Source of the DNA: Leucogyrophana mollusca
Taxonomy: Eukaryota > Basidiomycota > Agaricomycetes > Boletales
Length of the DNA stretch: 64,000 nucleotides
NCBI GenBank assembly: GCA_021014945.1
Contig: MU266444.1
Location: forward strand, 1-64,000
Direction: 5' to 3'
The notes beneath the pieces were generated by a model, which had not been told where the DNA came from, did not search any database, and worked only from the letters and a program-made list of their open reading frames with translations. Position 1 is the stretch's first letter. Every line of letters starts with the position of its first letter. Shown piece after piece: positions 17,683 through 52,857 of this stretch. The position numbers were made by a program, and so were the translations under genes.

Positions 17683-20600
17683 TCAAGCACCGGAGTCGTT
17701 CGCTCTCCGAGTCGTGGGAGTAGGCGGCATACCAGTCGACGTCCGTCGTTGCCGTTTCATCGCTAGTGTGCCACCAGGCGATGACCCCATCCCGGCTCGA
17801 TTCGTGGGGGCGCCGCGAGAAGCGCTGAATCCGGTCGGAACTGTGCTGGTCGTCGACGCACGTGGTCGAGTCGAAGAGGATGCAAGTTTGGGTAGGCCGC
17901 CAGCACCACCTTTGCGAGCAGTACCATTTGGTGTACCTGACGCACGATTCCTGTCAAGCATTGTCAATATTAGCTAGTGCTCACTGATGCGAGGGTCGGC
18001 TACTAACCTCTTCTTGATCACGTCCGTTTTTAGTGACAGTGGTCGGACCACACCGTGTAGTTTCTGCGGTCACCGGTTAGTCGGCCTATGATGAAAGACA
18101 TAGGCGCCACTCACATAAAACAGCCCACAAGCATTGCCTGTGAAAACGTATTGTTAGACAGGATCACTGACGGGGGTCGAACCAAACTTACACAATGGCT
18201 GTCCTTCAGGATCACGTCTCCAAAGTGGGGTGTTGGTTGTTTGACAATTAGTGCACGCGGTGGGCGTCTGATCGCCTTCATCACTCCCGCTTTTCCCAGG
18301 AAGGCTGCTATTCCCCTCTGCGGCAGTGAAATCGGGTGTACTCGTCGAGGACCTCAAGTCCTTGACGGCAGTAGCAGTAGTGTTGACCGATATTGACTTC
18401 TTCTTCGCATCCTGGACCACCCGCTTCGTGGAAGCGAATTTCCGCGGATGGTTGTGAGACGCCTGGCCGTTCGGCGCCCCCTCCACAGAAGGAGGCGATG
18501 AAGCATTTGATGTGATGTACGGCTCTGGAGAGGCAGTTGAGCTTGAATTTACGCCGTTACCCCAGCCATCACTTGATGGACTCGCATGATAGCTTGGTAA
18601 CAGCCCATCACCGTTCTCCACGGGCAGAATCTGGGTGGGATCGACATGTGTGTAGGGACCCTGTGCAAGGCCAACGCTCGAGTCAAGGGAGGCGTAAAAC
18701 GGGTTCAAGAGCTGATGGTAGTCGTCCGAGAAGCTCGCAGCATGGAGCTGAGCATAGCCCTCTTGAATGGCCGCATTCGCAGCTGCGGCGGCGGCGGACA
18801 GGCCCTCTGTTGGATTCGTCGGTGATCCGACTGTGGGTGAATATGTCGTTGATGAATGAGGACGGCGGAGTGGGTCGTGATAATGTAGGTCAGGAGGTCG
18901 AATGTCTTCGGGACCATGTAGCATTTGAGAAAACTCATTGTGCCCCATGGAAGACCCTGTGCCCAGAGCATCGAACATTGTGTCGTACGGCGGGAAACTG
19001 AAGTTGAAGGCAGTGGATGGGAAAGGACTACTGCTCACGAACTGTTCCGGCTCCTGCGGCTGAGGGTTGCCATCGACATTAGACGGGTCCGCGCGCAACA
19101 TACTCTCCGCATGCGGCGCATCGGCACGCCGTTTCTGTCCAACAAGGCTGTCCGGTGACAAGGGCTTGCCGTTCACTTGGTGTCGACCACTAACACCAGT
19201 GAATATGCCCTCCCTCTGCACCGTGTGGTCAAAGCTGGTTTTCCGCACATGTCTTGGAAATGCACGCTGGGGTGGAGACTGTTGGTCTGATGAGGTAAAC
19301 TTCGATGGGCCGTGGAAACCGAAGGAGGGAAGAGAAGACGGGTGGAAAGCGGGAGTGTTGAGAGCAGAAAGCGCATGTGGGTAATTACTGGCTTGAGCCT
19401 GGCGGTGAGACTGGCTTCCGTAGGTCACGTTTTCATCCCCCTGTCCTTCATAAACCGCTGCAAGTCCAGAGCGCAACGACGCAGACGATGGTCCAGAAAC
19501 ATGACGATCCGCGGATAGTGCGGAGGAACCAGGGATTGGTATGCTTGGCGATGCTGCGAGCCCCCTCAGCGCTGAATCTCCCGATGTATATCTGCCTCGT
19601 CTCTCTGGAGACTTCTCGATGTTAATGGGTTGAGCTTGCCCTGATGTAGGGAAAGGGTACCGCCCGTCGAATTGGGCGGACATCACACCATGTTGATCAA
19701 AGCTCGTTGCAGACTGCGGCGGCCGTGATCTTGAGCGACTCTGCGGCCTCCAGTCCATTGATATCCGAGACCGCGACCTGCTCATCGCTCGCCAGTCCAT
19801 AGGGACAACGCTGCGTGGAAAAGGTTAAGAGAGTGGAAATGGCGCCATATGTGAGCACTTACTCGTCATCCTCCGTGCCATCTTGATTTAGGCCATCGAA
19901 ACCAACAACTTGTACCTTCGCCTTACCCTTGTCAATTCTCCTCCCTCGCTCTTCACCATCTGCCTGAGATGTCGATGCATCGGGTTTGACGGAAGATACC
20001 TCTGGGGCCGAAGGAGAGGGCTCGTCTTTCACGTCCGACCGTTGGTTTGCAACGGTTTCAGCACGCTGAGCTTCTTCCTCTTCTTCCTTCTTCTTCTTGA
20101 GTTTCAAGGCCATCATTCGCCAGGTTATGTTCTCCATCCTCTGTGCATGAGGGAGGTTGGCTTTCGTTCTGGCGTACATCTTCCACACCTGCGTGGCCAA
20201 TGGGTCTTGCTGGGCGAGGGTTTCTGGGTCGTTATCGAGAGAGGGAAGCGCCGAGGCCTCAAGATCAGGCGAACCAGACAACCTTGGGGAAGTAAAATTA
20301 CTAGGTCCTGCATCTATGCTCGGCGTGCTAAATAGGTCATCAGAAAAGATGTCGCTCATAATCGCCGATTTGGAATCCATGGATAATGATCCTGTAGTTG
20401 AAGGAGAGGACTGCTTGTGAGCAGAAAGGGGTGATGGGTCTGGTTGCATGGAGCCAGAATGTGAAGGTATGGTCAACTGTGTCAGGGGAGAGTAGAGAGC
20501 TGGTGTCGACGGAGCGGTGGATGTCGGGGACATCCAAAGCGATGGCGGGACCCCGGTATTCGAACGTTCAGCTACAAGACCATAAGGAGGATAGTTCGTT

Positions 20601-32932: not shown

Positions 32933-33474
32933 ACTCCCGAGGCCTTTTATATTGAAGAACAGAACCGCTTTATCATCGATAATTCACGATGGCAGACTAG
33001 CGCAGCCACGCTAATGTTACACGCTAATCGGATGGCGTGTCAAGTCATCTTGTGGCGAGCCCCGGAGGTAGCGATGGCGTTATGTGCCATTGCGTGATTT
33101 TGCGTCGTCAGCTGGACGACAAATTGCCAAGTTCTGGCCAATTTCACGTTAGCACCATTGCCCAGCATTCAAATGCAAGTGGCCATAGCATGTTCGTGCC
33201 CTCTGTCGAGTGTATTGCGCTCGATAACTGTGGGATCGGAAGTCAAGCTTCACCTGAGAGAGTTGGTATAACCTTGTGAACAGCCGGAACACCAAGTTGG
33301 ATGGAGATTCGCCTCGGTTACGCGATATCTCACAAACTGGCAAACGTGGTGTAGTGGACTAGCATGCTTCAATTACTCTCCGTGGTGGAGCAAGATCTGC
33401 GTGAGTTTCGAAGAGAAGATCACCCTTGGGCGCCTGCTCGACCTGAACCTATAAATAATTTAATTTAATAATTA
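32933..33474. other. Intergenic, left flank of the transposon
   Basis: It contains the upstream region of the UPF0643-like gene and ends in a very AT-rich stretch (33451-33475) directly before the transposon's left TA. Such AT-rich sequence suits a TA-targeting element. A tRNA-like string at about 33343 was examined and rejected. Confidence 0.5.
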
Positions 33475-33572
33475 TTGTCCTTTTCAGGCAACTTGTCACA
33501 CGTGAAAAAATTGCCGAAAAACAACACCCTCACTCGCATCGACCATAGCGCTGCGACGATGGCCCGGAATTC
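33475..33572 (+). repeat. Left terminal inverted repeat
   Basis: It begins ttgtccttttcaggcaactt, directly after TA at 33473-33474. It pairs with 37795-37893 read on the minus strand at 23 of the outer 25 bases, with lower but clear similarity over the remaining 73. Confidence 0.8.
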
Positions 33573-33662
33573 ATCGGAAATGCTATCATTAGACTTGTAG
33601 GATTATGGTGAATGTATTCCGTGACGACCGACAATGAAAAAGGTAAGATTTTGAAAGTGTGA

Positions 33663-33693
33663 AATCCCGAGGCCAAAGCAGGGCTTCGGGATT
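33663..33693. repeat. Subterminal hairpin near the left end
   Basis: The arms aatcccgaggcc and ggcttcgggatt pair at 11 of 12 positions around a loop of about seven bases. The arm core aatcccga is the same sequence that is tandemly repeated near the right end (37676-37711), so it may be a subterminal transposase-binding or structural motif. Confidence 0.6.
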
Positions 33694-33816
33694 GGGTTCT
33701 CTTGCACATTTTCTCAAATTTGTGGATCGTCTTTGCTGAAAAACGCAACGGAATGGATTCTACGGGGTAGGAATAGTATGCGGTGTATACGATCAAAGAC
33801 AGAACCAGTGGTATAA

Positions 33817-35997
33817 CTAGAAAGGCCCTGACAAAATTCTCTTTCCCGCATTCACTGCCGCCAAGTCAAACTCTGCGTATTGCATGATAAGGATTGCAAT
33901 TCCGACCTCAATGCCAAGCCACGTCTGAAGGTCGCTGAGCTGGACATAGTTGCGGGTGAGCTGGGATATGCGGAGAAAACCCTTTTGCCTCAGTATAGGG
34001 CCATATGGTGCAAACACAATACCGTCCTTGTTTCGTTCTTCGTGCTCATCGAGGTATGCAAACCAGCGAACGATATCGGGAATATCAGCAACAGAAGGGG
34101 AGCCTGAATGCGGGGCGGGATGGTGGGATGGTGGTGTAAGATAAGTGCTTGATGGTCGCTGGTTTGATGGATAAGACAGTCCCTCACTTCCGTGGTAACC
34201 GGGCCCACCCCATGTTGGCGGTAAGACGATAACTGGAGGGGGGGGGTATGCGTAGCCACCAGGAGTGGCTGCGGGGGTCTCGGCTGCAGAAATGGAAGGT
34301 GCGTGTGGTGGGCGTGTGCGTGGTCTTGCATTCACGAAGGTAAGACCAGCTGGTTTATTGTCAACCGTGACAGCTGTTCCTGGTTCCATCTAGATTATGT
34401 CGTGTTAGCGTGTAAGCAAAGAACAATAATAAGTATTACCATCTCAAGCGCCCAGTACGAGATGTTACCATGCGTCAATGGCCAACAAACCTTGCTGCCA
34501 CCTGGACAATAGCAATACGTGGGGCTGTCAGGGCTCTTCGAGTGGCTTTTGCATGTCCAGCGCTCCTGAAGGCTCTTGACGTATTCTTGATGTTGTGTTG
34601 ATCCTTCAATCCGGCCACTTGGCGATACTGCTGGGGACTTCTCCTTGGTGGCAGCTGACGTTCTGGTATTATTGATCTGAAAAATAATCTACGAGTGATA
34701 TATACAGGATATAGGGACAAACGTACTGCCTTTTTTCCATTGCCAGCGGAGGAGGTGGTGGAGATATCCTTGGTACCTGCGTCTTCAAAGCGAACGGTGA
34801 CTGCTTTGATTGCACGCGTTGAAGGTTTTCCGTTAGCTAGGCGTGTAGGTACAACAAGCGCCCTTATTCGTCCGATGAAAATGTCAAGTTCTTCATCATT
34901 TTGAATCGAAGTCGCATTGGTCTTTGCTTTGTCGGAATCTAGACGGTATTGAAGTCTCACGTGAGCTGGAAAGCGCTCGATTTTCTCTGCAACAACGTTG
35001 CGAAGAGCATCGAGAGTGATGTCGGAGGATATCTTGAATGGTGCATTGCTGCCATCGGGTCGAGGTGCCGTGCATTCAATAGTGAAATCTGTAAGGTAGA
35101 CAGAATTGTCAGTTATTGTCGAAGCTGAAGATGCAAACTTACCACAGGTTTCAGGATCATACAGCTGGCTGGGTTGTGACGCTGAGGCCCGTTGCCCCTT
35201 CTTGATGGCCGGGGCCATCTTACGGCGCTGCTTGAGAACCTCGTGTGAGCCATTGTCAGACTCAGAGTCTGAGCCCGATACATCCATGTTGAAATCTTCG
35301 GGGCTGTAGCGGCTGTGGCTGCCATCACCGTTCACGTTGTTGTAATCACCGTCAACATTGTATTCCACGTGATTGCCGCTGAGAACGCTGATGAATGAAT
35401 TCATTTCGATGGACTGATCAATTTGCTCGAACGAAGGGTCAGCAGCAGGATCATTGAAGGAGGGGGGCGCTACGTCTTCCGACTCGTCCACCTCTGAGAT
35501 AGAATCAAGATGATGAGCGGAAGGGACATCTTGCTGAACGCTGACAGAAGGTCCCGGTGCAGCCGATTTACGCTGGCGCTTCGCCTTTGTTTCTGCATTG
35601 GGAGGAACAGAGCCTTGACGCTTTTGTGGTTGCTTTACGGTGGGTTGTGGACCACTTTGCGTGTTTCGTCGTCCACGGCGAGCTGGCTGACTGTTGACAA
35701 CTTCTTGACGATCAGGAGGTGGTGTGCTGAGCGCACGTGTCTGCCGCGTCTTGGTCTCTTGAGGTACACATGTTTGCGCTTGCCCCTTGGCAACACAACT
35801 TTGACATGCACTGGCTGTAGCGCTGAACGTGCAACGTATCTTGCGGCTGCGACAGTTCGAACACGCGCCAGCCTTCGTCTTGGTGCCTGAGTTGTCAGCA
35901 CGTGAAATCGTGAGCAATTGGATGTCCAATAGATCACACAAGACTGCTTACCTTGGTCTGAAGTGTGTGTCTGGGTGTTAGAGCTGTCGGAAGCCAT
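33817..35997 (-). CDS. Zn2Cys6-like cluster protein carried inside the transposon
   Basis: Starts MASDSSNTQTHTSDQ at 35997; an in-frame ATG at 36027 is possible. An intron with donor gtaagc leads to GTKTKAGACSNCRSRKIRC, then a second half SACQSCVAKGQAQTC. The cysteine spacing C-X2-C-X6-C-X8-C-X2-C-X8-C resembles a GAL4-type binuclear cluster. A long Gln/Ser/Arg and acidic region follows, then a predicted folded block: YLTDFTIECTAPRP, FKISSDITLDALRNVVAEKI, VRLQYRLDSDKAK and DELDIFIGRIRALVVPTRLA (the last with one residue skipped here). The 3' exons carry SPDSPTYCYCPGGSKVCWPL, THGNISYWALEM, VRWFAYLDEHEERNKDG and a C-terminal segment ending AGKRILSGPF. Similar proteins are repeated in mushroom genomes, to my knowledge without a known function. 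DNA binding is inferred from the cluster; its place inside the inverted repeats suggests a transposon accessory gene. Confidence 0.72.
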
Positions 35998-36414
35998 GAG
36001 ATCACGTTGTTCGATGTTCAAGCTCAAGCCCTAGGGCGAGCGGAAGCTGGACTAGTGAGTGGTCAAGCTCAAGATGTAAAGCAAGCGTAGCACCGAATTT
36101 TATTTGGGTCCAATATACACCACATGTCTAATGACATGTAGCCTGTGACACCGTCTGCAGTGTGCGTGATCAAAGTACCATTCAGCGGTAGATCAAAGTC
36201 GACCCAGCCTGCTGTGGATTTACGTTCCTCGGGAAAGCAACCCTTCAGCGGCGGATCAAGGTCAACCCAGCCTGCTGCGGATTTACGTTCCTCGGGAAAG
36301 ACAAGCTGGATGTAATTATTGCCTTCGGTGATCGAGATGTGAATGACAACAAGCAAATGCATGCGTAAAATTGCAAGAAAACAAGTACCACAATTCGTAA
36401 AGCAAACTTACAAA
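35998..36414. other. Spacer between the two transposon genes
   Basis: It holds a 63 bp tandem duplication (36181-36300), listed separately, and probably the promoter of the Zn-cluster gene together with the transposase terminator. Nothing else is supported. Confidence 0.5.
36181..36300. repeat. 63 bp tandem duplication inside the transposon
   Basis: Unit 1 (36181-36237) and unit 2 (36244-36300) both start ttcagcgg and end cctcgggaaag. They match at 52 of 57 positions, and all five differences are C/T or A/G transitions. The repeat lies in the spacer between the two genes of the element. Confidence 0.85.
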
Positions 36415-37614
36415 TCAGATATAGCCACAGTGCGAATACCAACCATAAGAGTCCTCTGGAGTGATGACATACAACGCTCGAAGCAGAGTGGTGTAGATCT
36501 CCTGATCTGACAAATGAGTCATCGCCATTCGGGTATAACTGCCGTTACGACGTAGGTGGTACTTCATGGCAGAAAACGCAAGTTCGATGGGGTTGAAGTC
36601 GGGGGAGTATGGCGGGAGAAATTCACAGCGCATTCCTCTGGATGGTGGTCAATCAATGGTTATGAAATCGAACACTGGAGATGACTTACCTGGCTTCAAT
36701 GAGCTCCTGGATCTCGGGATGCTTGTGAATCCTGCAATTGTCCATGACAATAACGGAATTGGGGGCGGGGAATGGTTGCATCTGGTCAAGTAAGCGCTCG
36801 ATGAACTGTTTGAACGTTTCTGTACAAAACGATCCCTCGACAACATCACAGTGTAAGATACCGTCATTGAGTGAGAGGGCAGGGAGAACCGAGAAACTAC
36901 AGAAGAATCAGAAAGAAAACTACGGAAAAAATAGCTACTTACCGCCGACCACGCACGAAGAAAGCTTTACGTTGTGCTTTGGTCCCACGAATTGACCAAG
37001 CACGCCCACGATAAGTTGTTCGACGATCCACAGAGCTCTCGTCGACGAAAACAAGCTGTTCAGCCATATATGTGCCTATCCTGGTCAGAAATTCGAGGCG
37101 TTTCTGCGCCGATCGTTCAGCCGCAACTCGTGTGATCTGTGAACATGAAATCATTGTCTATACATGAATATGTGAATAAAGACTTACCTTTTTCATTGAA
37201 AAACCAGCTCGTTGAAGTGTTCTCCAAACTGTCGAACGCGAGACCTCCACGCCACATGAAACTGCTAGCATTTCTTGGAGTTCATCTAGATAGAGATCGG
37301 GGGTATTTTGTACGGTTCCAAGGAGAAACTACCGTTGGTGTGTTAGTCGATAGCTTAGAGTGGTCATTGGAATCCATTACCTCTACATCAATGTCCCGAA
37401 GATGTCGATTAGTTCTTCGCTCTTGCGAAACCGTGTTTTCATCACCATCGCCAGGGTTAGGAACAGTTCCGTGAATTTGAAAGTGCGCGAGAATTCGTTG
37501 AACAGATCGAAGGGATAAATTGAGGCATGTAGCAATTTGGTCTTTTGCAAGGAGCCTGGATAGCCGTACAACAGCCCACTGTAATTCGGGGGTGGACTGC
37601 TGACCTTGCGGCAT
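36415..37614 (-). CDS. Tc1/mariner-type DDD transposase
   Basis: About 330 codons in several exons. An ATG at 37614 begins MPQGQQSTPELQWAVVRLSR, then an N-terminal helix-turn-helix (LLAKDQIATCLNLSLRSVQR), then LAHFQIHGTVPNPG. A second HTH-like segment follows (LYLDELQEMLAVSCGVEVSR, STVWRTLQRAGFSMKK). The catalytic domain shows all three acidic residues: LVFVDESSVDRRTTYRGRAW; VIVMDNCRIHKHPEIQELIE; and FLPPYSPDFNPIELAFSAMK. The third residue is Asp (PDFNPIE), so this is a DDD triad, not DDE. It ends at about 36415 after SYGWYSHCGYI. No stop or frameshift was found in the exons, so the enzyme may be functional. The reading frame is also open upstream of the ATG towards the right inverted repeat, and a donor-acceptor pair lies just before the ATG, so the start could be further upstream. 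The family cuts and pastes DNA at TA sites. Confidence 0.88.
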
Positions 37615-37675
37615 GTCTACATTGCATTTTGAGTGTGAAATCAACGCAAAGACCCAGAGCAACTCACCTGAGGAC

Positions 37676-37711
37676 GAAATCCCGAAATCCCGAAATCCCG
37701 AAATCCCGAAA
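37676..37711. repeat. Tandem 8-mer (gaaatccc) near the right end
   Basis: Four exact copies of gaaatccc plus gaaa. It lies 84 bp inside the right inverted repeat. The same core occurs in the hairpin near the left end. Confidence 0.9.
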
Positions 37712-37794
37712 ACACAAATACTCAATATCCCGCTATCGGTCGACTCGAAGGGTATTCGCGGGCGTCTTCCGATTCGAAAGGTATCGTTGATATC

Positions 37795-37893
37795 GAATTC
37801 CGGGCCAGCGTCGAGGAGGTACGGTCGATGGAAGTTTGGGTGCGTGTTTTCCAGCAGTTTTTCCTCACGTGACAAGTTGCCTGAAAAAGACAG
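37795..37893 (-). repeat. Right terminal inverted repeat
   Basis: Read on the minus strand it begins ctgtctttttcaggcaactt and is followed outward by TA at 37894-37895. It includes TCACGTGA at 37865-37872 and pairs with 33475-33572. Confidence 0.8.
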
Positions 37894-37956
37894 TAACCAG
37901 CCAAGGCCACGTGAGCACCTTTGTTCAGCCACCCGCAAAGCTTGTACGCTTCACAA

Positions 37957-38662
37957 ATGGCCACCAGGAAAGCAGCGGAATCGACGCTCTACCACGTTCA
38001 TCCAAAAGGTTTCTGGAAGAAATTCCGTGAGTTCAGCCAATACTTTTCAGCTTATCCTGTCTGGAACTACTATCTTCAGGTGATGCTGTTGTCGTAAATC
38101 CCGAAATCTCCAGCGGCATACCCATAGCAGGAATCAATAGGTGGCCGCAACCAGCTTCAAGGCCAGAGAAATACTCGACACCTGCGACGAAGGGTACGTC
38201 CACACGCTCGCTGGCTAAAAGTCTACCCTGATTGTAACCTTGTGAAGCTTCCGACCCGGCTCAAAATCCTTACTGGAAGAGAGATGTCCGACGTGCATAC
38301 CCTCAGCTTTCCGTGGTCACCCAACCCGATTTGTCTTCATTGCTCATCCAGCACTCCGAAGCGAAAGCGTACGTGTTCCGAACCCATGTTCCATGTGGTC
38401 CTGGGAATAGCTAACCGACATGCCCAGAATTCCTGCCCCGTCAGAAGGGAAAGAGGGCGAACAATCTTCCCTGCCCGCTAAAGCAGCGGAAATCATGGAT
38501 CTGGCCGGTGCTATAGCCACCATCACATCTACGCAGAAAGTGTATGACCAGGCTCGATTGCCTCCCAAGGTCCCCACGCCTTTCAAGAAGTGGAGAGCTG
38601 AGCGGGCTCCGGATGCTCCCCACGACCCCAACGCGTACTTCCCCATGTTGCTCTACAAGTAG
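37957..38662 (+). CDS. Complex I 21 kDa accessory subunit
   Basis: Starts MATRKAAESTLYHVHPKGFW at 37957. An intron with donor gtgagt (about 38028) leads to DAVVVNPEISSGIPIAGINR, then WPQPASRPEKYSTPATKAS. After further introns come DPAQNPYWKRDVRRAYPQLS, VVTQPDLSSLLIQHSEAKA and the C-terminal half IMDLAGAIATITSTQKVYDQ ... PPKVPTPFKKWRAERAPDAP, ending PMLLYK (TAG 38660-38662). Both halves match the fungal NADH-ubiquinone oxidoreductase 21 kDa subunit family (NUXM type), about 175 residues. It is a peripheral, non-catalytic subunit of mitochondrial complex I. The transposon ends 63 bases upstream of the ATG, so the core promoter overlaps or abuts the transposon end. Confidence 0.92.
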
Positions 38663-48958: not shown

Positions 48959-50473
48959 TTATTCGCGTTTAGCAAGCGGAGGTGTTTGAGAACCATCTGA
49001 ACCCGTCGTGCTGCTATTGCTGTCAGTTTGTCTTTGCGCAAACGGCAGGAGAGAAGGCACTGCAGCGAGATATGGTGCGTTGAAGATAGATCTATCGAGA
49101 ACGGCGGGAATGGTTCTGATAGATATACTCAGCCAGAGGATGAACACGATGACTTATGGTGGTGTCAGAAAGCCTCGGAATTAAGGACGGAGAAAGGCTC
49201 GTACCAGACCAAATTGCGCCAAACACACGGAAGAAACCACTATTCAACACGGCACCCAGCTGCACGGAAAGCAGTGCGTAGACCCCGTTTGGGAAGACCA
49301 ATCCCCAGTACGCCAGGGAAAATGGAATGTTGCCCTCCTTGCGAAAAACGTTGTATATAGAGCATAGCGCAACCAGAATCCAACAGATTCCCATCGACCA
49401 CAAGGCGTAGGCACCGCAGAAACAAGCAGTGTACAAGACCTGGCCGGTGACGTCGGACGTTGGGAAATTGCCCTGGACGTGTAGCGGAAGAAGCTCAGAA
49501 AGATTCTGACCATTCACAAGGAGGGAGAATCCTCCCTGGCCCAAGGGTCCGAGGACCACGAATGCCGACAGGATGAGATCTGCGTCAGGGGGACCGTGCA
49601 AAATGAGCCGCGCCAGATACACCGTGATCATCATCAGAGCCAAGGTGAGTCCAATGATCACCATAGTGAGGGAAAACCCGGTCGTAAGAAGAGCGATGGT
49701 GGTAGAATGAGACTTGAGCTCGGCGGATAGTAGACCGCCTGTAGATGACGCGACAATAAGGGTGACAACCGGCAGTAGCCAAACTGCAGCCATCTTTGAG
49801 AGCGTGTGCTTCTGTTTTATCATCCTAGAAACCCTGTCACTCGAAAGGCGCAGTAAAGACCGGAAGCCAGACGTACATTGCATAAAGCATCCCAAATGCG
49901 ACCGCATATGACACAAGGGAGTCCAGCCACCAGAAACCCCACAGAGTATACAGAAATCTGGTCCCACCAAAGCCCCATTCCTGGTTAGCAACCTGAAAGG
50001 AATAAGATGAGGATCAAATCAAGTCACACGTCCGAGCAACGCACCAGGGCTATGTTTATGAGGGTGGCCGCACCCATCGGAAAGGCCCCGATGAAAAGAC
50101 TCTGCGCAGGATGTTGCAACATAACTGACCATACCTGATACCACGAGGAATTCAACGATACATCTCTCCATGCGCAATAACGACTCACCTCCGGAAACAT
50201 CGCGTACCGGGCGATCGTCGCGGAGCTGATTACCACGAACAGAAGCAGATTCAAGAAAAACATGATCAGAGTGATGGCCTTAATGGCAAGACTTCCGTGG
50301 CCGTAAGGAAAAGAGTGGACCAGAGCAGATGTAGCACCGGTTCCCATTATAACAGTGTGCCATGCCCAAGTGAAGTGGCTGGCGAGCAAAGTCAGAAGTT
50401 TCAGTGCAAAAAGGTTCACGGTTACATACCGAATGCACTCTCTCCACGTCTTCCTGGTAAGCGCTGTAGTCAT
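48959..50473 (-). CDS. SSU1-like sulfite/anion efflux transporter, copy 1
   Basis: Starts MTTALTRKTWRECIR at 50473. A short intron (gtatgt to cgccag) joins ECIR to HFTWAWHTVIMGTGATSALV. About ten hydrophobic segments follow, such as AIKAITLIMFFLNLLLFVVI, HPAQSLFIGAFPMGAATLIN, LWGFWWLDSLVSYAVAFGML, MAAVWLLPVVTLIVASSTGG and VFPNGVYALLSVQLGAVLNS. These are hallmarks of the tellurite-resistance/dicarboxylate (TDT) family that contains yeast Ssu1 and Mae1: FTxxWxxxxMGTG and FPMGAATLIN. The C-terminus is cytosolic and ends PPLAKRE at TAA 48959-48961. Ssu1 exports sulfite. Substrate assignment here is inferred from closeness to Ssu1 motifs and is not proven. A paralogue with the same first intron follows. 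Confidence 0.87.
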
Positions 50474-51281: not shown

Positions 51282-52857
51282 TCAACATCGCGAGCTCTCG
51301 TTGGACTCTTCTTTTCGTGACATTGCTATTGCCTCTTCTTCTAAACACGGTGCATCGAAAATCACTCCGCTCGGAACAAGGCGGGCAGTCGGAACAGCGA
51401 TGCATATCCAGAGCACCAATGTGGCCGCACCGTAAATAGCTCCCCACACGCGGAAGAAATGCGAGTCAAATGTGCGGTATAGTTGGATGGTTAAATTCGC
51501 ATAGACACCCTATATTCAGGCATATCGTTCTGGTGAGTTCTCATAACTTGTAGCGAAGACTCACGTTGGGGAAGATCATCGACCAAAACGATAGTTTGAA
51601 CGGGATGCGGTTGTGTCGCGCGGCATCTTGCAAGCCGAGTAATGCAAATAACAACCACATCGTCGCAAACGCCCAAAGTGCAACAGAAATGGCGGTACAG
51701 AGCACATAAAGTGAATCTGCTGTAGTCTGCGCGCGCAGAATAGCGGAGTCACCGTAGTGTAGGGGCAAGATAGATTTGAAAGATTGTCCGATAAGCAAGA
51801 TAGAATAGCCCGCTTGACCACATGGACCAAGGGGAAAGAAGGCAGACAGGATGGATAAACCTAGAGGATACCCGTGAATCATGAGCCGAAGGATGTAGAT
51901 CGTGAGCATCATCAGGGAAAGGGAGAGACCGATGGTGACCATGCAGGCAGAGAACACGGTGGTGAGTAGCGCATGAGATGGCGAGAATTCCACTAGCGCG
52001 GAGGCCAGCACACCCCCCGATGACGAACCAACGATCAAGGTAACCACTGGAAGCAGCCAAGCGGTAGTCATCGACTTTAGTGAGTGCTCTTGTCGCGTCA
52101 CCCTAGCAATCCAATGAGCAATCCGATGACGGGAATGGATCTTACGGCACGAACATGACATGCATCATACCCCAGCAACAAATAAAGGATATTGCAACAT
52201 CAAGCCACCACACTCCCCATATGAAATAGACAAACGTATCTCCTCCAAAGTTGTAAGTCTGGAAGATAGCGCCTATTGCGACGTTGATTAGAGTGGTGGC
52301 GCCCATGGGAAAGGTGCCTAGGTAGAGGCTCTGGACAGGGTGTCGAATCATCCGAGGCCAAATGTCAGGGAACAATATGTATCGAGCAGCACTGATGGCC
52401 GTAAATAGCATGAAGAGGCCCAGGTTGAAGAAGAAGAATATCATCGTCAGCGCCTTCATTGCTGTTGAGTCGTTTGCATATGGGTAGTTGTGAAAGAGGA
52501 TTGATATTGCGCCAGTCCCTGTTGAGACCATGGAGTCAGCTCTGGACAGGACAATACGATGCAAGGAAAATTCGCGGGTGACAGGTCACGAAGATCTTCG
52601 AGCTCGTTTGAATCTGTTTCACCAAGAGGGACGGGAGAAGGGCTTTTTGGATGGTATGGGCTTGTAAATGCCAGTGCTCCTACTGAAGGACATAAAAAAT
52701 GGGTGACGGGTCTACACACCCATTGTGACAGCGAACCATGCTGGAGTGAAATGGCTAGGAAACAATGGGTTCTTTAGGTTCACTTTGAAGCTAGCGCGGG
52801 TACCTACCGAACAATATCACTTAGAGACTTCTTCCGCAGGGTATTGTTTGCGCTCAT
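51282..52857 (-). CDS. SSU1-like sulfite/anion efflux transporter, copy 2
   Basis: Starts MSANNTLRKKSLSDIVR at 52857. A 50 nt intron (gtaggt to tcctag) splices DIVR to HFTPAWFAVTMG, and the next intron (donor gtgtgt) leads to TGAISILFHNYPYANDSTAM. The first intron is at the same codon phase and motif position as in copy 1. Membrane segments include MIFFFFNLGLFMLFTAISAA, HPVQSLYLGTFPMGATTLIN, WGVWWLDVAISFICCWGMMH, TTAWLLPVVTLIVGSSSGGV and FWSMIFPNG. After the FPNG exon end come VYANLTIQLYRTFDSHFFRV and WGAIYGAATLVLWICIAVPT, and the C-terminus ends SNESSRC at TGA 51282-51284. TDT family, like copy 1. Sequence has diverged substantially from copy 1, so the duplication is not recent. The reading frame is intact. 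Confidence 0.85.

What the first reader, a model, noticed from the sequence alone, without database searches (positions are those of the whole stretch)
33475..37893. A 4.4 kb two-gene Tc1/mariner element with matching ends and TA target sites
Both ends are present: about 98-99 bp inverted repeats, with 23 of the outer 25 bases matching, and TA immediately outside each. Between them lie an apparently intact DDD transposase and a second full gene. Most Tc1/mariner elements carry a single gene and are about half this size. This could be an autonomous element with an accessory gene, or a captured host gene.
Basis: partly seen in the sequence, partly recalled or inferred. Interest (0 to 1): 0.85.

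Follow-up and report, generated by a model that had tools for sequence, protein, structure and literature searches.

The report
Two-gene Tc1 transposon in a fungus
This is a jumping gene of a well-known kind that usually carries one gene, but here, and in most of its relatives in the same wood-rotting fungus, it carries a second related gene that may help or control its movement.

Summary
The element at 33475-37893 is real: ~100-bp inverted ends (23 of the outer 25 bases match), TA outside both. The window is from Leucogyrophana mollusca (Boletales). The transposase is Tc1-type DD34E, not DDD. The second gene (653 aa) encodes Zn2Cys6, a PB1-like domain, a small Cys/His module (CH) and a SAM-like domain. 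It does not look like a lone captured host gene: of 12 other contigs with related transposases, 10 have a CH hit beside and convergent with the transposase; 5 of these are bracketed by long TIRs with both genes inside. A Melanogaster broomeanus gene model joins this transposase to this second gene in the same order. The window differs in its tandem order and Zn2Cys6 domain. A 400-bp TA-flanked relative keeps both distinct ends. Best reading: a fungal Tc1 lineage with an inherited accessory gene, perhaps a DNA-binding, self-assembling transposition factor or regulator. Function, activity and empty sites are untested. Ten PMC searches listed no report of this in fungi.

The parts
33473..33474 (.). 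TA outside the left end (target-site duplication, with 37894-37895)
   Evidence: sequence
33475..33574 (+). left terminal inverted repeat, about 100 bp, on the second-gene side
   Evidence: 80 of 103 columns match the right TIR, z 14.0
33575..33684 (.). left subterminal stretch kept by the C1 deletion derivative
   Evidence: inner left 100 bp 82% to the derivative's left, z 15.9
33663..33693 (.). two AATCCCGA copies facing each other (33663+, 33686-)
33817..35997 (-). second gene, 653 aa; exons 35997-35952, 35886-35143, 35088-34727, 34676-34440, 34389-33817; Zn2Cys6 (Cys 24, 27, 34, 43, 46, 55), PB1-like about 255-370, CH module about 408-480, SAM-like 567-645
   Evidence: identical to L. mollusca BV22DRAFT_1130419 (P0001)
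36177..36300 (.). two tandem copies of a 61-nt unit (90%) between the two genes
36415..37614 (-). Tc1-like DD34E transposase, 332 aa; exons 37614-37381, 37328-37188, 37136-36943, 36896-36690, 36637-36415
37675..37711 (.). array of the 8-bp unit CGAAATCC (4.6 copies; four AATCCCGA), 61-97 bp before the transposase start
37699..37793 (.). right subterminal stretch kept by the C1 deletion derivative
   Evidence: inner right 100 bp 75% to the derivative's right, z 12.1
37794..37893 (-). right terminal inverted repeat, about 100 bp, on the transposase side
37894..37895 (.). TA outside the right end
   Evidence: sequence

Best explanation
One DNA transposon of the Tc1 (DD34E) kind whose lineage inherited an accessory gene before most Tc1-like elements of this genome diverged. 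Shown by sequence: both genes lie inside one TIR/TA unit; relatives of the accessory gene recur, convergent with the transposase, at 10 of 12 other transposase contigs; in the window the gene is in tandem and has a Zn2Cys6 domain. Inferred: the transposase cuts and pastes at TA; the accessory protein binds the element's own DNA through Zn2Cys6 (candidate sites: AATCCCGA repeats inside both ends and in front of the transposase gene), self-assembles through PB1 and SAM, and either helps bring the ends together or sets transposase expression. My odds: accessory gene is an integral, inherited part of the element about 0.9; its product acts on the element's own ends or transposase promoter about 0.5.
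For: CH profile: the top 10 of 3030 six-frame ORFs are one each at ten transposase loci, all within 2 kb past the transposase 3' end on the opposite strand, a zone with 273 of 3030 ORFs. Five long-TIR elements with the CH hit inside the TIRs. CH module homologous between the two best-studied accessory types (probability 95.8%, E 6.6e-9); same PB1-like then SAM-like order in both models. M. broomeanus P0023 joins the two genes in the window's order. The C1 derivative keeps both distinct ends. Six of 24 relatives come from one species, Boletus coccyginus, as for a multicopy gene. AATCCCGA: 7 in the window against 2.2 expected, 0 of 100 shuffles reach 7.
Against: One full-length copy of this family in one genome; no empty site. 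C404 and C77 have no CH hit; C77 has a 25-nt inverted repeat around a very divergent DDE_3-like gene and may lack this gene. PB1-to-PB1 and SAM-to-SAM profile links between types are weak (3.9%, 2.7%). The weaker CH hits are only suggestive one by one (E 0.013 and 0.075). P0023's model lacks the stretches with the first D and the E, so it may be decayed or misannotated. Four of the six AATCCCGA sites are one tandem array and one more lies 204 bp outside the element. No activity, expression or binding data.
Confidence: 0.78

Rival explanations
1. The accessory gene is integral but acts as a transcriptional or anti-silencing regulator only, with no role in the cut-and-paste step.
For: Zn2Cys6 proteins are usually transcription factors (recalled); the AATCCCGA array lies 61-97 bp before the transposase start; profile match to chromatin-remodelling RSC3 and to HAP1.
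Against: The other accessory types show no Zn2Cys6 match, so a promoter-reading role would not explain why they are kept; two inverted copies of the motif sit at the other end.
Confidence: 0.35
2. A host regulatory gene was captured once by this element and is a passenger.
For: Zn2Cys6 is a common fungal host domain (recalled); the domain was found only in the window type; typical Tc1 elements have a single ORF (PMC7325037 passage).
Against: CH relatives beside the transposase at 10 of 12 other contigs; same gene pair in another species; no relative found away from transposase contigs. The Zn2Cys6 domain alone could still have been gained from a host gene.
Confidence: 0.06
3. Composite or nested insertion: two unrelated elements, one inside the other, so the outer TIRs do not define one unit.
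For: Gene order differs from the relatives; only one full copy.
Against: Five other long-TIR elements hold the same pair; the C1 derivative has the second-gene-side and the transposase-side end together; none of the 3 inverted pairs brackets one gene alone.
Confidence: 0.03

Closest known systems
Tc1 family (DD34E) of the IS630-Tc1-mariner group
   Same: DD34E triad, DDE_3 and paired HTH domains, TIRs, TA target
   Different: 4.4 kb with a second conserved gene, against a single ORF and about 1.3 kb (PMC7325037 passage)
TBE and Tec elements of ciliates
   Same: DD34E Tc1/mariner elements with extra ORFs; TBE carries a zinc-finger protein (PMC7325037 and PMC12242761 passages)
   Different: Three ORFs, ciliate hosts, other accessory proteins as described there; no ciliate sequence was compared here
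TIR_1 of Pleurotus ostreatus
   Same: Basidiomycete Tc1-mariner, DDE_3, long TIRs (214 nt), TA (PMC4905642 passages)
   Different: Listed at 1.6 (kb, as I read the table row); only a transposase is mentioned in the passages seen
En/Spm (CACTA) TnpA-TnpD and Harbinger Myb-like helper (recalled, no call)
   Same: DNA transposons with a second DNA-binding protein acting on subterminal repeats or on the transposase; an analogy of working only
   Different: Other superfamilies; no homology claimed or tested
Ant1 of Aspergillus niger (recalled; one search listed no paper on it that I opened)
   Same: Fungal Tc1/mariner-type element with extra sequence
   Different: Recalled as a captured host amylase fragment, not a conserved accessory gene

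Membership tests
Tc1 family of Tc1/mariner | DD34E catalytic triad in a DDE_3 domain | tested here: met
   D157, D242, E277, spacing 34; DDE_3 103.8 bits, cut-off 28.6
Tc1 family of Tc1/mariner | N-terminal HTH DNA-binding domains | tested here: met
   HTH_23, HTH_33, HTH_Tnp_Tc3_2 over cut-off
Tc1 family of Tc1/mariner | TIRs with TA target-site duplication | tested here: met
   TA both sides also in C533, C216, C416, C122 and the C1 derivative, one side only in C460
Tc1 family of Tc1/mariner | single ORF, about 1.3 kb (typical, not defining) | tested here: not met
   two genes, 4419 bp
Tc1 family of Tc1/mariner | active cut-and-paste transposition; empty site with one TA | not testable with these tools
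   one genome; flanks occur once
Zn2Cys6 proteins | six-cysteine binuclear cluster | tested here: met
   CX2CX6CX8CX2CX8C at 24-55; Pfam 20.1 bits, just under its cut-off 21; 11 of 24 relatives at E 0.1 or better; profile hits RSC3, CYP1/HAP1
PB1 domain proteins | PB1 fold | tested here: met
SAM domain proteins | SAM fold at the C-terminus | tested here: inconclusive
ciliate TBE/Tec | homologous accessory ORFs | not tested
   no ciliate sequence was compared

The most novel reading that the evidence does not exclude
Mushroom-forming fungi host a lineage of Tc1/mariner transposons that are two-component elements: a PB1-CH-SAM accessory protein, older than the split of most elements seen here, is needed for or controls transposition, and in one Boletales branch it was inverted within the element and carries a Zn2Cys6 domain that reads subterminal repeats.
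Probability: 0.4. Interest if true: 0.8.

Novelty: new variant of a known kind. Interest (0 to 1): 0.62.

Why it matters
[quoted passage not shown] A fungal lineage in which a second gene is inherited with the transposase would be a further case beside the ciliate TBE/Tec elements, in hosts that can be handled genetically, and would make it testable why a superfamily able to move with one protein would keep a helper. It would also explain at least 42 database proteins (24, 18), mostly named 'hypothetical protein', as likely transposon genes.

Full report
WHAT WAS CHECKED. The element spans 33475-37893 (4419 bp) with TA at 33473-33474 and 37894-37895. Its ends match over about 100 bp: 23 of the outer 25 bases and 80 of 103 alignment columns (z 14.0 against shuffles), while the next 100 bp inward are at background (z 1.3). 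A 24-nt TIR probe with up to 3 mismatches hits 5 places in the 32.3-Mb assembly: both ends here, both ends of a 400-bp element on contig C1, and one on C52; the reversed control hits none.

WHERE IT IS FROM. The window is contig C118 of a 32.3-Mb, 545-contig genome; C118 is 84,384 bases long. The protein database holds the second gene, identical to my spliced model letter for letter, as Leucogyrophana mollusca BV22DRAFT_1130419 on a contig of 84,384 bases. A relative on C216 (48,670 bases) returns BV22DRAFT_1039024 on a contig of that length. L. mollusca is a basidiomycete of the Boletales.

THE TRANSPOSASE. Five exons on the minus strand give 332 aa. Pfam: DDE_3 (103.8 bits), HTH_33, HTH_Tnp_Tc3_2 and HTH_23, all over cut-off. 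The triad is D157, D242, E277 with spacing 34: DD34E, not DDD.

IT IS A FAMILY TRAIT. A protein search with the transposase found pieces on 12 other contigs; I fetched all 12, plus the three places with TIR-like DNA only. Long inverted repeats bracket five: C533 (176 bp, 97%), C216 (98 bp, 93%), C416 (45 bp, 84%), C122 (78 bp, 88%), C460 (83 bp, 92%), elements of 2.9-3.5 kb. TA abuts both ends in C533, C216, C416 and C122; in C460 one side only. In each, the transposase lies towards one end and a second gene, convergent with it, towards the other. A CH profile of 40 database sequences, run over 3030 six-frame ORFs of the 15 fetched loci, puts on top ten ORFs (E 3.1e-23 to 0.075), one in each of C216, C357, C323, C416, C514, C102, C533, C460, C122 and C89. 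All ten lie within 2 kb past the transposase 3' end on the opposite strand, a zone holding 273 of 3030 ORFs. The zone was defined for 11 loci; C77 was left out. The profile contains the C216 protein itself, so nine of the ten are independent (naive odds 3.9e-10). In the five bracketed elements the CH hit is inside the TIRs. C404 and C77 have no CH hit; C404 has a convergent ORF that by eye holds another SAM-like stretch, and C77 has a 25-nt inverted repeat around a much more divergent DDE_3-like gene. Whole-genome protein searches with four second genes matched only contigs that carry these transposases; they score best candidates only.

WHAT IS SPECIAL HERE. In the window the second gene is in tandem with the transposase; in the ten loci with a CH hit it is convergent. 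An unrooted FastTree of query-anchored transposase pieces joins the window with M. broomeanus P0023 (0.992), next to C102 and C533 (0.997), apart from the other loci, so the tandem order looks derived. P0023 is a 755-aa gene model in which this transposase runs into this Zn gene in the same order; it lacks the stretches with the first D and the E, so the copy may be decayed or misannotated, but it shows adjacency in a second species. The Zn2Cys6 profile matched no ORF of the other loci better than E 0.8.

ONE MOBILE UNIT. The C1 element (288920-289319, 400 bp, TA on both sides) looks like an internal-deletion derivative. Its inner left 100 bp match the window's inner left (82%, z 15.9) and its inner right 100 bp the inner right (75%, z 12.1); crossed pairs are at 51-53% (z 2.0-2.3). 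The end beside the second gene and the end beside the transposase have thus travelled together.

HOW IT MAY WORK. Shown: the anatomy above. Inferred: the transposase cuts and pastes at TA as Tc1 elements do; the second protein, with a DNA-binding domain and two likely assembly domains, holds or marks the ends, or sets transposase expression. A candidate site is AATCCCGA, which bears the CCG triplet typical of Zn2Cys6 sites (recalled): 7 in the window, 2.2 expected, 0 of 100 shuffles reach 7. Six are inside the element: two in the left subterminal stretch, four in one array 61-97 bp before the transposase start. Because four are one array and a seventh lies 204 bp outside, this is a lead, not a proof.

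COMPARISON. By triad, domains, TIRs and TA it is a Tc1-family element. It departs from the usual single ORF and about 1.3 kb (PMC7325037, passages). Extra genes in Tc1/mariner are described for ciliate TBE and Tec (PMC7325037, PMC12242761, passages). The basidiomycete TIR_1 of Pleurotus is described with a transposase only in the passages seen (PMC4905642). Ten PMC searches listed no report of a conserved second gene in fungal Tc1 elements; the library is incomplete.

LIMITS. One genome, one full copy of this family, no empty site, no expression or activity data. Genome searches score only the best candidates, so counts are lower bounds.

Noticed in passing
window 38097-38104: A seventh AATCCCGA lies 204 bp outside the right end of the element; none elsewhere in the window outside the element.
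   Followed up: partly
window 36177-36300: Two tandem copies of a 61-nt unit (90%) between the transposase stop and the second gene's start, perhaps part of the second gene's promoter.
   Followed up: no
window 33632-33652 and 37178-37198: A 21-nt inverted match (90%) between the left subterminal stretch and the transposase exon 2/intron 2 junction; chance or an old rearrangement.
   Followed up: no
L057 5632-6306 (C404), minus strand: The divergent Tc1-like locus without a CH hit has a convergent ORF with what looks by eye like another SAM-like stretch, perhaps a second kind of accessory gene.
   Followed up: no
L060 1846-5227 (C77): 25-nt inverted repeats (92%) around long ORFs with a sub-threshold DDE_3 match: probably another transposon type.
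   Followed up: no
L046 6503-7177 and L058 6698-7291: C102 and C89 share another repeat, with the same ORF stretch beside two different Tc1-like loci.
   Followed up: no
window 18154-19800, minus strand: 548-aa ORF with a GATA zinc finger near its end: an ordinary host regulator.
   Followed up: partly
window 49092-49907 and 51541-52161, minus strand: Two similar ORFs; the first matches SLAC1 (PF03595), the second looks like a neighbouring paralogue by eye.
   Followed up: no
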